The notes under the pieces were generated by a model that saw nothing but the letters and a program-made list of their open reading frames with translations, was not told where the DNA came from and searched no databases. Of a stretch of DNA of 64,000 nucleotides, positions 5,498-18,773 are shown piece after piece (the first letter of the stretch is position 1; each line of letters opens with the position of its first letter). A program made the position numbers and the translations under genes. Where the stretch lies: assembly GCA_903873915.1 (NCBI GenBank), contig CAIQQH010000008.1, forward strand, positions 1-64,000, given 5' to 3'. Source of the stretch: an uncultured Flavobacteriia bacterium. GTDB taxonomy: Bacteria > Bacteroidota > Bacteroidia > Flavobacteriales_D > Crocinitomicaceae.

Positions 5498-5670
5498 GAT
5501 TTTAAGACAAAAGACTCGTCAGCCGCAGCTGACTGAAAGACGAAGGACAAAAGACCTTAACCATACTTCGGTGGCTGAGGTTCCGAAGGAAGTCTCGAAG
5601 TCACCGGTTGGATTTTAAGACAAAAGACTCGTCAGCCGCAGCTGACTGAAAGACAAAGGACAAAAGACTC
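5498..5670. repeat. Two direct copies (period 113 bp) of a ~57-bp intergenic repeat GATTTTAAGACAAAAGACTCGTCAGCCGCAGCTGACTGAAAGAC(G/A)AAGGACAAAAGAC
   Basis: Copies start at 5498 and 5611, nearly identical; each contains the inverted motif GTCAGC-cgca-GCTGAC. Confidence 0.85.
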
Positions 5671-5693
5671 AATTATGTTTCGGTGACTAAAGC

Positions 5694-5795
5694 AAAAAAG
5701 GAGCACTCAATTGTACTCCTTCTCGTTACCTAACCTAAACCTAACTAAACTACTGCTGTCTATGAATTCCGGGAACCACCCCGGGTGTTTTATGA
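5694..5795 (-). ncRNA. Candidate small RNA, copy 1
   Basis: Upstream TATCTTTG (5805-5798); hairpin CCGGG-GTGGTT-CCCGG; linker AGCAGTAGTTTAGTTAGGTTTAGGTTAGGTAAC; terminator GGAGTAC-AATTGA-GTGCTCC-TTTTTT; homologous to copy at 8790-8886. Confidence 0.7.
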
Positions 5796-5928
5796 TTCAA
5801 AGATATCGTCAGGTTTAGAGTGTGGGAAAGAAATAGTTGTGCGACTGAAGCAGTTTCAGTAAAAGCGCTTAGTTCTTCTACGTAGTTCTACTTATCAGAA
5901 GTCACCTTAAGTGGTTTCTTGGGATTGA

Positions 5929-6897
5929 TTAATGGTAGGAAACAAGATTTTTAGACTTTTCATCCCAAAGTTTTAGCGACAAACATCGGCGGATTTCTTT
6001 CCATTGGAGCGACGTTGTTTTGGGATTTTGAAGAATTGGAACATCACGCATCACTTCAGGTAAACGATAGAAGGGTATTCGCGCGTTGATGTGATGAATA
6101 TGATGGTAACCGATATTCCCCGTAAACCAATGCATGATGCGATTTGTCTTCATAAAACTTGACGATTCCATGGCTGCATCAATGTAGCTCCATTGCTCAT
6201 CGGACATATACCTTGCTGTTGGAAAATTGTGCTGGGCATAGAAAAGATATGCACCCAAGCCACCGGAGATAAAATGAGGAATCAAGGTAAAAAAGATACT
6301 TGTAGACCACCCGAAATGAATGAAAATAAATACATGAAGAGTGAAATAGAAACTCAAGGCAAAAATGGCTTCTTTGTTTTTAGAAAAACTTACAATCAAT
6401 GGGTGAATGCACATCCCGACGAGAAAAGAAAAGATGAACCCATTAACAATCACGAAAGGATGTCGGATAAACATATACTGACGCTGCTGTTGTGCATTGA
6501 GTTCTTGGAAACGACCTAAGGTAAACATCGGATAGGATCCAATTCCTGATTTAAACAACTTTGAATTGTGATCATGGTGATAATTGTGGGACCTGCGCCA
6601 AACAACTTTCGGACACAACACATAGTACCCAAAAATAGAAAATAGAACTGTCGCGATTCTATTTTCTTTTAAAATTGCGAGATGTAAATAATCGTGGTAA
6701 ATGACAAACATGCGAACGATCAGTAAACCACAGAGTATACTTAGTGGAAGTTTAATACTCCAATGTAAATGCATGGTTAATGCGACTAAATTCGCAATCA
6801 AGAGCAACAAGGTGGAGAGCGTTAGCCACCAACTTTTCAATCGATTTTCGTGCGCGTATGCTGCGGTTATAGCCAACAGGTCTTCGTTCGTTTTCAT
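5929..6897 (-). CDS. Membrane fatty acid desaturase
   Basis: 322 aa; His boxes HDYLH, HNYHH, HHIHH; multiple TM helices. Confidence 0.85.
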   Translation of the reverse strand: MKTNEDLLAITAAYAHENRLKSWWLTLSTLLLLIANLVALTMHLHWSIKLPLSILCGLLIVRMFVIYHDYLHLAILKENRIATVLFSIFGYYVLCPKVVWRRSHNYHHDHNSKLFKSGIGSYPMFTLGRFQELNAQQQRQYMFIRHPFVIVNGFIFSFLVGMCIHPLIVSFSKNKEAIFALSFYFTLHVFIFIHFGWSTSIFFTLIPHFISGGLGAYLFYAQHNFPTARYMSDEQWSYIDAAMESSSFMKTNRIMHWFTGNIGYHHIHHINARIPFYRLPEVMRDVPILQNPKTTSLQWKEIRRCLSLKLWDEKSKNLVSYH

Positions 6898-7982
6898 TGT
6901 ACAGTAATTGCAGTTTTTGAATTTTTGCTGAGCAATCGAAAATGCGAAATGACAGCAGAGATTAAATACTTTTTACTTCGGTATGGGTAATTGTATTTTT
7001 GACAGGTTTCAACCAAGATCTTGGTTAGCTCGGGATAATGGATATGGCAAATATGTGGGCACAAATGATGGATTACATGAAAATTAAACCCACCAAAAAG
7101 AGTCAAAATAAAAGGATTTGATTTACCAAAATCTGAAGCAGTCAAGACCTGATGGTAAGACCAACTGTGCGGCAGTTCATTGTTTTCATTCGGTTCTGGA
7201 AACTGAGCATCTTCACCAACATGTGTGCTTAAGAGTACAAAAGTGATGACCAAACTTCCAAGCACGGTTAAAAGAAAAAATGCAGAGAGTGCAAAAAGCC
7301 AACTCAACTTTAATACTAGGACAGGTAAAACAATAAATTGAAACAAATAGAACAATTTAAAAAAGATCATTTGTACCAATTGTTTTTTGGGATAATTGCT
7401 ATTGTCGAATACGCCAATTCTTTTGGAAAAAGCATCTTTGAAATCCCGGTATAATACCCATCGGAAAATATAGAGCATATACACCACTGGCATGTATAGG
7501 TGCTGAAACCGATGGTATATACGATGCCTATCTTTGGGGAAAATTTTTACAACACTGGTCTGCTGAATATCAGAATCGTAATTCATAATGTTCGGATACA
7601 CATGGTGAGCACCCAAATGCCTATTGACCCAGTTGTATGAATTTGTTCCAAGGAGATCAAACACCATTAACAATGTTTGATTGTCTTTTCTTCGTTTGAA
7701 GATGGCATTGTGCGCGGCATCATGGCCTATGTTAAGACCTAAAAAGACAGACCATGCCCCAAGGAAGGCATAGAGTAAATAAATGAAAAAATGATTTCCA
7801 TCCACCCAAAAAATGGATAAATACCCTAAAATGTATAATAGCGTCATTAGCACTAGTTTCATTTTCATGGCATTGTTGGCGTAATGGGTGAGATTGTTTG
7901 ACTTGAAATAGTCGTCAATCCTTTCTTTTAGCTCATTCAGAAAATTCGAGTTCTCGCGAGAGAATGAAATGTTTTCTATCAT
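6894..7982 (-). CDS. Membrane fatty acid desaturase (acyl-CoA/lipid desaturase type)
   Basis: 362 aa; His boxes GHDAAH, HLGAHH, HVIHH; 4-bp overlap with downstream desaturase. Confidence 0.88.
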   Translation of the reverse strand: MIENISFSRENSNFLNELKERIDDYFKSNNLTHYANNAMKMKLVLMTLLYILGYLSIFWVDGNHFFIYLLYAFLGAWSVFLGLNIGHDAAHNAIFKRRKDNQTLLMVFDLLGTNSYNWVNRHLGAHHVYPNIMNYDSDIQQTSVVKIFPKDRHRIYHRFQHLYMPVVYMLYIFRWVLYRDFKDAFSKRIGVFDNSNYPKKQLVQMIFFKLFYLFQFIVLPVLVLKLSWLFALSAFFLLTVLGSLVITFVLLSTHVGEDAQFPEPNENNELPHSWSYHQVLTASDFGKSNPFILTLFGGFNFHVIHHLCPHICHIHYPELTKILVETCQKYNYPYRSKKYLISAVISHFRLLSKNSKTAITVQ

Positions 7983-8578
7983 AGTAATGTGCTTTTTGAT
8001 GCCGGTTCCCGTTTAAAAAACCAAACCGTTAAATCTGTGAATGGATGTTTCATTTCCGCATATTCGACATAGCCACTGGACTGGTACAACTTTCGTACAC
8101 GAGGAACTGTTGTTTCAATAAAGATGCACAAATCGGACTCGTCACTTGAAGCAAACATTTTGTGTTTGATTTCAAAAGCCGTTTTTGACGTTCGACGTTC
8201 CTTATCCGTTGCTACCAAAAGACCTAACAACCCATTTTTATGTCGGACAGATGCAATAATTTTCTGGTATTGAATGGCCTTTAATCCATTTCTGACGCCC
8301 GTGATAAATAAAAGAACATAGAGACGAAGAAAGATTAATCGCAGTGAAGTAACTTTTTGATTGACTTGAAAAAATAAGACTGCCCCATTTTGGTCACTTG
8401 TAATAAATGCACCTTTCTTGGCTTGAGATTCATAAAACAACAAACGGATAATCCATTTTCGTTGCTTTAGATTTGTAGGATCCTTTACCATCCAATAAAC
8501 GCCAAGTGAATCGATGAAGGCATCTTCTAAGATCTCAATCGCCCTTTGTGCATCATCCCGTGTCTGAACTAATTTCAT
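7979..8578 (-). CDS. GNAT-like N-acetyltransferase
   Basis: 199 aa; GLLVATDKERRTSKTAFEIKHKMF ... LCIFIETTVPRVRKLYQSSGYVEY; overlaps downstream desaturase by 4 bp. Confidence 0.65.
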   Translation of the reverse strand: MKLVQTRDDAQRAIEILEDAFIDSLGVYWMVKDPTNLKQRKWIIRLLFYESQAKKGAFITSDQNGAVLFFQVNQKVTSLRLIFLRLYVLLFITGVRNGLKAIQYQKIIASVRHKNGLLGLLVATDKERRTSKTAFEIKHKMFASSDESDLCIFIETTVPRVRKLYQSSGYVEYAEMKHPFTDLTVWFFKREPASKSTLL

Positions 8579-8789: not shown

Positions 8790-8886
8790 AAAAAAGGAGC
8801 ACTTGATGTACCCCTTTTTGTTACCTAACCTAAACCTAACTAAAACTACTGCTATGAAAAACGGGAACCACCCCGTTGTTCTGTGT
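8790..8886 (-). ncRNA. Candidate small RNA, copy 2
   Basis: Promoter TTG-N21-TATATTTG (8920-8889); hairpin ACGGG-GTGGTT-CCCGT; same linker; terminator GGGGTAC-ATCAA-GTGCTCC-TTTTTT. Confidence 0.72.
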
Positions 8887-9002
8887 ATCAAATATAGGGT
8901 GTGGAATGACGACATGTCAAGGATTTGACGTCGAAGCAGCTCACTTTCAGTAATCCTGCGTAATAGAACTACTTAGAACTACTTAGCATGGTGGATAAAA
9001 AC

Positions 9003-14608: not shown

Positions 14609-15946
14609 ATGCTTAAATTATTTGATTTAAGGTTTTTAACGTTTCTCACGGTATTATCATTCTCCAATTGCAGAGCACAAATTATTGCTTCCAACAATGT
14701 TTTGATTCAAGTAAATTCAGGTGGTTTAATCCATTGTAATGGTGGTTTTGAATTAAATGGTGCAGCTCAACTCACAAACCAAGGAACAATTTACACCACC
14801 AAAAACTCAACCTTTACGCAGAACGGAAACTTTACCATAAACGGCACATCTATAAGTGATGGAAATGGCGAGTACTTCGTCGAACAAGATTGGAAAAACA
14901 ATTCGGTATTCGCAGGAGGATCAAGTACAGTTCACCTTTACGGCAACACAGAACAATTCATTACAAGCGACAATTCAACAGAGACCATTTTTAACAACCT
15001 TATTCTCACAGGTTCAGGCAGTGGGGTAGATAAAAGAAAAACCCTCTTAAACACCAATGCTTCGTGCGGAAATCTAGGTAATTTAACACTAAACAATCGT
15101 GAATTAGCGACCGAAGGGAACACCTTTAGCGTCTTGAATCCTTCTCTTTCTGCAATTGCCTTCGACAACACTTTTTTGGCTGAAGGTTTTGTAAGTAGCA
15201 TTCTTTCTGGTTCGCTCGTGCGTACTACAAATACTACACAGAACTATATTTTTCCTGTTGGATCAAGCAATGGAACTGAGCGTTTTAGAGCAGTAACTAT
15301 CCAACCAGAAGCGAATACTTCTCAAACCTATGCTGTCCGTCTCAATAACTACAGCGCGGACCTTGATTCGTATTTTTTGAGCCAACACGAAACCTTAATC
15401 GACAATGGAAATTCACTTTTCTATCACTCGATCGAACGCATTTCAGGAAATGCCAATGCCAACGTCAGCGTTCAATACCTTCCTACTTCCGATGGTGATT
15501 GGAAGGGGCTTGCACATTGGTTTCTGCCCATTCAACAATGGAACTCACTTGGCGACTTGCCGCAATTAATCAACGGGAATTACAGCGAGATTTTGCGCAG
15601 TGGATGGAATTTTCCTGATGCGTCGAATGCTTATGTACTTATGAATCCCGCTGATATCATTATTATTCCAACAGCATTTACGCCTGATGGAGATGGCACA
15701 AATGAACTTTGGGAAATTCCTAACTTAGATAAACAATATCCAAAAAATGTCGTGCGCATCTACAACCGTTGGGGAAGTTTATTGTATGAACATGACTCCT
15801 CTACCGATGGTTTATATTCTACAAAGCCTTGGGACGGTACTGTTAAAGGCGATTTAATGCCTGTAGGTTCTTATTACTACATCATCGACTTCAACAATTT
15901 AGACAATAAGTCTGTCAAAGGAATAGTGACCATTGTCAATCAATAA
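14609..15946 (+). CDS. Secreted protein with gliding motility-associated (T9SS type B) C-terminal domain
   Basis: 445 aa; signal peptide; C-term [43 protein letters not shown]...[20 protein letters not shown]. Confidence 0.9.
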
Positions 15947-15965
15947 AAACTACAGCTCAAAAACT

Positions 15966-18773
15966 ATGAAAATGAATTCATTTTACCACACCGTATTTAT
16001 TGCAACTTGTTTTGTTGTATCCCAATCAACTAGTGCACAGAACAATGTAGGGATCGGCACGAACACACCAGACCCAAGTGCTATTGTTGACATGTCAGCA
16101 TCTGACAAAGGGATGCTCGTGCCTCGCATGACAAGTGTCCAGCGAACAGCAATTGTTAGCCCTGCTGAAGCCTTGATGGTGTACGATACAGATGTCGAAT
16201 GCTACTTCTATTTTAAACTTTCCACCGGTTGGTTAAACCTCTGTGGAGCAATGACTGGTGCACAGGGACCTCAAGGAATCCAAGGGCCAATTGGATTAAC
16301 AGGTGCTGTTGGAGCCACAGGACCACAGGGACCTATTGGTTTGACAGGCGCTATAGGACCGCAGGGACCGATTGGTTTGACGGGTGCTGTTGGAGCTACA
16401 GGAGCAACAGGACCGCAAGGTCCGATTGGATTAACAGGTGCTGTTGGAGCCACAGGACCACAGGGACCTATTGGTTTGACAGGCGCTACAGGACCGCAAG
16501 GTCCGATTGGATTAACAGGTGCTGTTGGTGCTACTGGAGCTACAGGACCGCAAGGTCCGATTGGATTAACAGGTGCTACTGGTGCCGTTGGTGCTACGGG
16601 TCCTCAAGGTCCGATTGGATTAACAGGTGCTACTGGTGCCGTTGGTGCTACAGGTCCTCAAGGTCCGATTGGTTTAACAGGTGCTGTTGGACCGCAAGGG
16701 ATAGCCGGTGTTGATGGTGCTGTAGGTGCTACGGGACCTCAAGGTCCTACTGGTTTGACAGGACCGCAGGGTCCGATTGGTTTGACAGGTGCTACCGGCC
16801 TTCAAGGTCCGGCCGGCGTAGCAGGACCGCAAGGGATAGCTGGTGTTGATGGTGCTGTGGGTGCAACTGGGCCTCAAGGTCCGGCCGGCGTAGCAGGACC
16901 ACAAGGGCCTCAAGGTCCGGCTGGAGCAAATGGTCAAGGGGGAGTTTCCATTTCAGGAACTGGAGTCACTTTGACAGGAACAGGAACGGTTGCCGATCCT
17001 TATGTCATCAATGAGAATGACGACGATTGGAAAATACTTGGTAATGCAGGGACGGTTGCAGGCACAAATTTCATTGGAACGACCGATGCCCAAGCCTTTA
17101 TAACAAAAACAGGTGGGAACGGTGCAGCGAACGAGCGCATGCGTATTCTTGCAACAGGACCAGGAATATATAACGCAACTACTCCAGTTGTTGGGGATGT
17201 GTTCTCTGTGTATTCCACTGGAGCGACAGGTGCAATTAACCCACTGGGAACATTTGCCGTGAATGGCTATTCAGCCGGCAACGGAACGGGCGTATATGGC
17301 GAAACCAACGGCGGAGCTTCCACAAATGGAACAGCTGTTTGGGGTACTATTTATGGAACAGCCACTACCGCTTCATCAACGAGTGAAGGAATCTGGGGAT
17401 TGAATACAACTGCTCCTGCGGGAACAGGAGCTACGGCTGCCGTTGCAGTTGGAGTACGCGGAGAAGCTACAGGGACTGCAGGTACTGCCTTTACAATGGG
17501 TGTCTTAGGGATTTCGACAGCAACTGCTGGTGGAGCATATGGTGTTTACGGACAATCATCTTCACCCGCTGCTATGGGAGTTTTTGGAGTTAATCTTGAC
17601 GTGAGTGCTAACCCAGCACATGGTGTTCAAGGTCAAACTGGTGCCGTTGGAAGTGCCGCGGGAATACGCGGATTCAATACTGCGGCAGCGATTGGTGCTG
17701 GACAAAACGGTTTCGGTGTGAGAGGTAGTGCCAATGCGGCTCCAACGGGTACTGGTTTCGTGATGGGTGTTCGCGGTGATTGCAGTGGTGCAACTGGATC
17801 CACATATGGAGTTTATGGCCAATCAGCCTCTGCTACTGGGTTTGGAGTAGATGGAGTTAATACGAATGCATCTGGAACTGGCTTGTTCGCAATAGGAAAT
17901 AATGCTGCCGGAACCTATCTAACAGGTGGCTCAGGAGCAGCGATAAATGGTTCAGGCATTGGAACTTTTTCAATTGCAAGAACTGCAGCAAGTGGAAATG
18001 GTGTTGTCGGTATTGGGAACAACCTTACAGGATCAATTTATACTCCTGGTTCGGGTAGCGGTGTTACGGGAGTTGGAGCTCAATATGGAATTGTGGGATT
18101 TGCAACAACGACGGTAAATACAAACCCATTGAACAACTCTGTGTCGAATGGAGCTGGAGCAAGTGCTGGTGGGTACTTCGAAGTGTTAACTGCTGGTATT
18201 GCGCAAACATGGGCTTATGTTGGTGCACGAGACAATACGGGTACGCTTCGTAAAATCATCGGTTCAGGAACCGTAAACACAATTGTAAAAGACCTTGATG
18301 AAAAATATGTGGCACTTTCTTGTCCAGAAGCACCTGAAAACTTGTTCCAAGATTATGGTGTAGGACAGTTGGTCAATGGCAAAGTACACATCACGATTGA
18401 TCCAATTTTCGCTAAAAATATTGTGGTAAACGAAAACCATCCTTTGCGCGTATTTGTGCAACTGGAAGGCGATTGCAAGGGAGTTTATGTGACAAACAAG
18501 ACAAAGGATGGATTTGATGTCATCGAGTTGAATGCTGGATCTTCCAATACCTCATTCTCTTGGTCGATTGTTGCCAACCGTGCTGATGAAATATTGCCTG
18601 ATGGAACGATTTCTAAGTACTCTAATGAGCGTTTCGCTCCGGCTCCAGGACCACAAGAGAAATTAACACAAGAAATCAGTGAAGAAAATTCAGCAGTGCG
18701 CAACGTTCAGTCAGAGGAGCCTGTATCACCCGCTAAAGTTGGAACGAAGGAAAATCCACGAAAGAAATTATGA
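15966..18773 (+). CDS. Secreted collagen-like (Gly-X-Y) repeat protein with glycine-rich C-terminal repeats
   Basis: ORF track starts at 15933 but the signal peptide begins at [16 protein letters not shown] (15966); ~225-residue [16 protein letters not shown] tract. Confidence 0.88.
16257..16940 (+). repeat. Tandem collagen-like minisatellite inside CDS
   Basis: Repeated units such as ggtgctgttggagccacaggaccacagggacctattggtttgaca. Confidence 0.9.

What the first reader, a model, noticed from the sequence alone, without database searches (positions are those of the whole stretch)
5694..5805. Paralogous small-RNA candidate, copy 1 (UUAGG-linker RNA)
Minus-strand unit with TATCTTTG -7 box, hairpin CCGGG-GUGGUU-CCCGG, linker AGCAGUAGUUUAGUUAGGUUUAGGUUAGGUAAC, then a 7-bp terminator stem and U6. 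The second copy 3.1 kb away keeps the linker almost identical. The hairpin stem changes by compensation (C-G to A-U at the base) and the terminator keeps pairing despite A-to-G and loop changes. That is the signature of a selected RNA, not a coding or mobile sequence. The linker carries UUAGG three times (UUAGG-U-UUAGG-UUAGG), suggesting a single-stranded protein-binding or antisense surface.
Basis: partly seen in the sequence, partly recalled or inferred. Interest (0 to 1): 0.75.

Follow-up and report, generated by a model that had tools for sequence, protein, structure and literature searches.

The report
Paralogous start-codon-blocking small RNA family
Two copies of a small RNA gene in this window belong to an undescribed family of bacterial regulatory RNAs whose single-stranded middle is complementary to the start regions of secreted-protein messages, so they probably switch off the making of surface and secreted proteins.

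Summary
Two minus-strand units (5694-5809 and 8790-8904) share a TAnnTTTG promoter box, an invariant GUGGUU hairpin, a long unpaired linker and an intrinsic terminator. A covariance model finds a third copy elsewhere in the genome and orthologues of all three in sister species. A more distant fourth copy lies in the own genome, and distant relatives occur across the family. Between species the transcript keeps 88% identity, while flanks are near 30-36% and four-fold sites 31%. Terminator pairing is kept in 117 of 117 cells through double changes. So this is a selected RNA, not chance or a recent copy. No Rfam family reaches threshold; FopS, a Bacteroides sRNA family, is the best sub-threshold match to copy 2. 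The conserved linker core, UUCAUA-n-AGUAGU, is the complement of a start codon and its surroundings. Seed complementarity peaks at start codons of signal-peptide genes, replicates in one other genus and is weak in another. All three copies carry an upstream palindrome, CTAMKTAGWWCTAMKTAG, found elsewhere in the genome only before small SprB-repeat secreted proteins. Best explanation: trans-acting base-pairing sRNAs, FopS-like in working but not shown to be FopS members. Transcription and repression are untested.

The parts
5878..5895 (.). Upstream palindrome (UAS) of copy 1, ATAAGTAGAACTACGTAG on the minus strand, about 75-90 bases upstream of the -7 box
   Evidence: Pattern CTAMKTAGWWCTAMKTAG, five sites in the genome (two for the reversed-pattern control), three of them before the three sRNA copies
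5798..5805 (-). -7 box TATCTTTG of copy 1 (Bacteroidota TAnnTTTG type)
   Evidence: 17 of 20 columns of the box region invariant in five species, while the stretch upstream of it aligns at only 29%
5694..5787 (-). Copy 1, predicted sRNA of about 95 nt (transcription start about 5787-5791, inferred)
5769..5784 (-). 5' hairpin, invariant GUGGUU loop
   Evidence: Loop identical in 13 of 13 copies; outer pair C-G, A-U or U-A
5729..5766 (-). Single-stranded seed/linker UUCAUAGACAGCAGUAGUUUAGUUAGGUUUAGGUUAGG, complement of start-codon regions
5694..5721 (-). Intrinsic terminator of copy 1
8969..8986 (.). Upstream palindrome (UAS) of copy 2, CTAAGTAGTTCTAAGTAG
8889..8896 (-). -7 box TATATTTG of copy 2, with TTGACA at 8920-8915 upstream
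8790..8880 (-). Copy 2, predicted sRNA of about 90 nt
8860..8877 (-). 5' hairpin of copy 2
8824..8861 (-). Seed/linker of copy 2, UUUUUCAUAGCAGUAGUUUUAGUUAGGUUUAGGUUAGG
8791..8819 (-). Intrinsic terminator of copy 2
5929..8578 (-). Context: GNAT-like gene and two fatty-acid desaturase genes lying between the two copies; same order in sister species

Best explanation
The element is a trans-acting regulatory small RNA of about 90-95 nt, one of at least four paralogues in this genome. An unknown activator binds the upstream palindrome and switches on copies 1-3 from TAnnTTTG promoters. The RNA keeps a short GUGGUU hairpin at its 5' end and a terminator at its 3' end, and leaves the 40-nt middle unpaired. 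That middle (UUUUCAUAG-CAGUAGUUUUAGUUAGG...) pairs with mRNAs around their start codon (5'-...CCUAACUAAAACUACUGCU-AUG-AAAA), mainly mRNAs of proteins with signal peptides, and blocks translation initiation. Shown here: the anatomy, selection on the RNA, the paralogue family, the shared upstream palindrome, and selective complementarity to start regions of secreted-protein genes. Inferred: transcription, pairing in the cell, the sign (repression) and the inducing signal.
For: Selection: transcript 88% identical with 74 of 97 columns invariant in five species, flanks 29-36%, four-fold sites 31%; 117 of 117 terminator cells paired with four doubly changed pairs. Family: covariance model hits at 67-118 bits in five species. 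The fourth paralogue in the own genome, G000:C85, has orthologues in all four sister species and in further species of the genus. Core UUCAUA..AGUAGU shared by 19 members whose terminators differ. Seed: real seeds, not shuffled ones, show a peak of complementarity at the start codon of signal-peptide genes (copy 3: 16% of them at or below -14 kcal/mol, against about 3% in most windows elsewhere, in other genes, or with shuffled seeds). The linker alone against the 5' leader alone separates signal-peptide from other genes (difference -0.47 to -0.83 against 0.0 +/- 0.25 for shuffles; 0 to 2 of 60 as low). Replicated in another genus with its own seed (G138: -0.75, 0 of 100; the top seven of 302 start regions are all signal-peptide genes). 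Pattern search of the whole genome: two hits at real start codons besides the antisense of two sRNA copies, both of secreted proteins. Predicted duplexes are kept in most sister-species orthologues (-23.6 to -28.6 kcal/mol with the copy-2 seed) and weaker in two species that lack copies 1-3. Mechanistic precedent: GibS and FopS pair with start regions of mRNAs and repress them (PMC7366714, PMC11697453).
Against: No expression data exist for this organism. In absolute terms the linker pairs no better with start regions than composition-matched shuffles do; only the contrast between gene classes and the position of the peak stand out. The test was weak in a third genus (G106: 10 of 100 shuffles as good). 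Signal peptides were called by a simple rule, starts are first-ATG starts, and only 640 kb of 2.8 Mb was used. Conservation of target leaders was not compared with leaders of non-targets, and one orthologue pairs less well (-19.1).
Confidence: 0.62

Rival explanations
1. A sponge for an RNA-binding protein: the UUAGG/UUUAGG repeats bind RRM proteins (as CsrB-type RNAs bind CsrA), and any complementarity to start regions is a by-product.
For: Every genome of the genus has RRM proteins, two in most of them; the linker is unpaired and repetitive; RbpB binds single-stranded parts of FopS sRNAs (PMC11697453).
Against: The repeat number varies freely and copy 3 nearly lacks it, while UUCAUA..AGUAGU is kept, the opposite of what a repeat-binding sponge predicts. 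It does not explain the start-codon peak. The two roles can coexist.
Confidence: 0.15
2. Base-pairing sRNA with another main target class, for example acting through the GUGGUU loop or on another sRNA, the anti-start linker being only part of the story.
For: The GUGGUU loop is strictly conserved in 13 copies, and UGGUU recurs in distant relatives that lack UUCAUA.
Against: The linker is as conserved as the loop among orthologues, and the anti-start signal is replicated in a genus whose sRNA has no such hairpin.
Confidence: 0.12
3. Cis-acting leader or attenuator: copy 2 lies 5' of the GNAT-desaturase operon and its terminator would gate that operon.
For: Copy 2 sits on the same strand about 210 nt upstream of the first gene, and a copy-2 element lies upstream of it in sister species.
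Against: Copies 1 and 3 have the same architecture without such a downstream operon; no alternative antiterminator pairing was seen; all three share their own promoter and upstream palindrome.
Confidence: 0.05
4. A small mobile element (MITE-like) scattered in the genome.
For: Several copies per genome, intergenic.
Against: Orthologous positions in five species, unrelated flanks, no terminal inverted repeats seen, four copies only, compensatory changes.
Confidence: 0.02

Closest known systems
FopS (BTncRNA_FopS, Rfam RF04319; Bacteroides thetaiotaomicron, 14 paralogues)
   Same: Multicopy sRNAs ending in an intrinsic terminator; seed UUUUUCAUAGUAUUAGAUUUAAGGUUAACAAA has the same layout as UUUUUCAUAGCAGUAGUUUUAG...AGGUUAGGUAACAAA; it is the complement of start regions of secreted or outer-membrane proteins; best of 4227 Rfam models for copy 2 (24.9 bits, E 0.035).
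   Different: Far below the gathering score (56) and not the top hit for copy 1 or for other family members. Has an invariant 5' GUGGUU hairpin that the FopS consensus lacks, a repeat-expanded linker, and an upstream palindrome on copies 1-3. FopS is reported as conserved within Bacteroidaceae, whereas this lies outside that family (and record title).
GibS (RF04182) and BTnc049 (RF04179)
   Same: GibS: unstructured conserved seed pairing with start regions; BTnc049 also has a 5' hairpin.
   Different: Sub-threshold (16-17 bits against gathering scores of 115 and 82); GibS has a second seed not seen here.
Rfp18 of Flavobacterium psychrophilum
   Same: Only sRNA with a tested function that I found in flavobacteria; predicted to pair with secreted metalloprotease mRNAs (PMC9723704).
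   Different: Pairing region lies in a third stem-loop; its deletion lowered target mRNA levels. No sequence comparison was made here.
Qrr sRNAs of Vibrio (from general knowledge)
   Same: Several redundant sRNAs switched on by a shared upstream site; distant relatives here seem to have TGGCAC-type (sigma-54-like) promoters.
   Different: No sequence relation known; no Hfq or LuxO shown; copies 1-3 have TAnnTTTG promoters instead.

Membership tests
FopS (RF04319) | Covariance-model score at or above the gathering score of 56 bits | tested here: not met
   Copy 2 at 24.9 bits, E 0.035; copy 1 not listed up to E 10
FopS (RF04319) | Several paralogues per genome | tested here: met
   At least four in the own genome
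FopS (RF04319) | Single-stranded 5' end carrying the R1' seed, then a terminator | tested here: inconclusive
   A similar seed layout, but preceded by a conserved hairpin in copies 1-3; copy 4 and relatives lack that hairpin
FopS (RF04319) | Seed complementary to start regions of SusC-type or secreted-protein mRNAs | tested here: met
   Signal-peptide genes enriched at the start codon; SusC genes as such not tested
FopS (RF04319) | Binding by the RRM protein RbpB, which relieves repression | not testable with these tools
   RRM genes are present; binding unknown
GibS (RF04182) | Gathering score of 115 bits and seeds R1 and R2 | tested here: not met
   16.4 bits for copy 2
BTnc049 (RF04179) | Gathering score of 81.9 bits | tested here: not met
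   17.0 bits for copy 1 and 16.6 for copy 2
Any Rfam family | Match at the gathering score | tested here: not met
   Only a tRNA in the whole window
MITE or mobile element | Terminal inverted repeats, target duplications, unstable positions | tested here: not met
   Orthologous positions in five species, flanks unrelated between copies; target-site duplications not looked for separately

The most novel reading that the evidence does not exclude
A new sRNA family, specific to one bacterial family of the order Flavobacteriales (order inferred), acts as a master repressor of signal-peptide and type IX secretion cargo genes by masking their start codons. It is switched on through one palindromic operator together with a few small SprB-repeat surface proteins whose own start regions escape pairing, so the cell exchanges one set of surface proteins for another.
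Probability: 0.33. Interest if true: 0.72.

Novelty: new variant of a known kind. Interest (0 to 1): 0.58.

Why it matters
Bacteroidota generally lack Hfq and ProQ, and only a handful of their sRNAs have known targets. This family would extend start-codon-masking, multicopy riboregulation, known from gut Bacteroides, to environmental relatives with an unrelated or strongly diverged sequence. It would give a concrete seed, target list and operator to test. If the two groups share ancestry, the mechanism is old in the phylum; if not, it arose twice, which would suggest that start regions of secreted-protein genes are a favoured target. It also offers a route to how type IX secretion cargo is regulated after transcription.

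Tried and rejected
Known Rfam family: rejected at gathering thresholds. Coding function: GTG-initiated frames through the hairpin stop after a few codons, and the frame is not kept between copies (read directly). MITE: rejected. Simple long-match target search: TAAAACTACTGCTATGAAA with 3 mismatches is no more frequent than its reversed control (5 against 4), although the two non-sRNA ATG hits are real starts of secreted proteins. Covariation on the first six sequences: not better than shuffles, resolved with 13 copies. Low-scoring covariance hits (below about 30 bits) were treated as unproven unless they showed the UUCAUA core or a tandem arrangement. Exact core search in 395 genomes of the class: only four, all of the same bacterial family, none in the reversed control. 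Literature search for sRNAs of this group of bacteria gave nothing relevant.

Full report
What is there. On the minus strand the window holds two units of the same build: a palindrome 70-90 bases upstream, a TAnnTTTG -7 box (TATCTTTG 5805-5798; TATATTTG 8896-8889), a short G+C-rich hairpin with loop GUGGUU, a linker of about 40 bases and a terminator with six T. Copy 1 lies between a fatty-acid desaturase gene and a dihydrouridine synthase gene; copy 2 lies upstream of a GNAT-like gene and two desaturase genes (the GNAT label is my reading, Pfam gave no match). The long linker word occurs exactly twice in the window and never in shuffles, and both RNAs fold better than shuffles.

It is a selected RNA. 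A covariance model of six copies finds three strong paralogues in the clade: copies 1 and 2 at the desaturase locus, and copy 3 on another contig (G000:C88:27334). Not every copy was found in every species, but the assemblies are incomplete. Orthologues of copy 1 in five species keep 88% identity over the transcript, with 74 of 97 columns invariant. The stretches on either side are at 29% and 36%, and four-fold degenerate sites of the neighbouring desaturase gene between two of these species are at 31%, which is saturation. Over 13 copies the terminator pairs in 117 of 117 cells with four doubly changed pairs, the outer hairpin pair is C-G, A-U or U-A in 12 of 13, and the loop never changes. 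The terminator arms were set by hand in that count.

It is a family. The genus and family searches also gave many weak hits. Reading them shows that a good part are real relatives: terminated intergenic units with the core UUCAUA(AG)UAGUAGU...UUUAGGUA, some in tandem. A fourth, more distant paralogue is in the own genome (G000:C85:5298, minus strand) with orthologues in all four sister species and in further species of the genus; upstream of it lies TTGGCACACAATTTGAA-like sequence, which resembles a sigma-54 promoter (resemblance only). Aligned, 19 members share UUCA and AGUAGU-type sequence while their terminators differ. An exact form of the core was found in 4 of 395 genomes of the class, all in the same bacterial family, and never in the reversed control.

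How it probably works. The complement of UUUUUCAUAGCAGUAGUUUUAGUUAGG is CCUAACUAAAACUACUGCU-AUG-AAAAA, that is, a leader, a start codon and a lysine codon. With 498 gene starts from 640 kb of the own genome, seed complementarity has a peak exactly at the start codon of genes with signal peptides; shuffled and reversed seeds have none there. To exclude that CAU and UUUU alone make the peak, the linker without them was tested against the 5' leader without the start codon: the difference between signal-peptide and other genes is -0.47, -0.83 and -0.71 kcal/mol for copies 2, 3 and 1, against 0.0 +/- 0.25 for shuffles. The linker is on average a poor binder of leaders, so the claim is selectivity, not strength. 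The same test with the different seed of another genus gave -0.75 (0 of 100 shuffles), its seven best start regions all being signal-peptide genes; a third genus gave a weak result (10 of 100). Three predicted targets keep strong duplexes in most sister-species orthologues, and weaker ones in two species without copies 1-3. By the precedent of GibS and FopS, pairing at the start codon would repress translation; this step is inferred.

When it is switched on. The palindrome CTAMKTAGWWCTAMKTAG has five places in the own genome against two for the reversed pattern: the three sRNA copies, and two genes for small secreted proteins with SprB repeats (the second SprB match, 27.4 bits, is just under its cut-off of 28). 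Both have counterparts of the palindrome in a sister species; the gene behind it was read there for the first one. The start regions of these two genes pair weakly with copies 1-3 (-8 to -11 kcal/mol), so they may escape. A tandem pair of distant sRNAs in another species of the genus has the same palindrome. The factor and signal are unknown.

Comparison with known families. Among 4227 Rfam models FopS is the best for copy 2 (24.9 bits, gathering 56, E 0.035), with BTnc049 and GibS also listed; copy 1 has BTnc049 first at E 1.6; other members do not point to FopS. It works like FopS on the evidence given, but membership is not shown: the score fails, a 5' hairpin is added, and protein binding could not be tested. 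I therefore call it a new variant of a known kind.

Limits. There is no expression evidence. Target statistics rest on simple gene and signal-peptide calls and on part of the genome.

Noticed in passing
G000:C132:4054 and G000:C76:24400 (L158, L164); G008:C20:25037, G008:C42:13918: The sRNA palindrome also precedes two small secreted SprB-repeat proteins (225 and 216 aa), suggesting one regulon with the sRNAs.
   Followed up: partly
L160 (G009:C35:68790): In another species the palindrome precedes a receiver-only NarL-like response regulator gene, with a short terminated unit containing GGTGGTTTC in between.
   Followed up: no
L067, L068, L070, L071, L074, L080: A second class of terminated units, partly in tandem, with GUAGAGUGGUUUCA-type hairpins, TGGCA-type promoter-like sequence and TTTTGGGAAAATATTCCAAAA-like palindromes upstream; looks like a further sRNA array, possibly sigma-54-dependent.
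   Followed up: partly
G000:C85:5264-5335 (L211): Fourth, apparently ancestral paralogue of the sRNA in the own genome, found in many species of the genus, with TGGCACnnnATTTGAA-like sequence upstream.
   Followed up: partly
L014:3258-3400: In one sister species the 3' end of the desaturase gene runs directly into the copy-1 promoter, apparently by a deletion that removed the upstream palindrome.
   Followed up: no
window 5515-5680: Two near-identical repeats TTTCAGTCAGCTGCGGCTGACGAGTCTTTTGTCTTA between copy 1 and dus; unexplained.
   Followed up: no
window 15933-18773: Long ORF with collagen-like [11 protein letters not shown] repeats, probably a surface protein.
   Followed up: no
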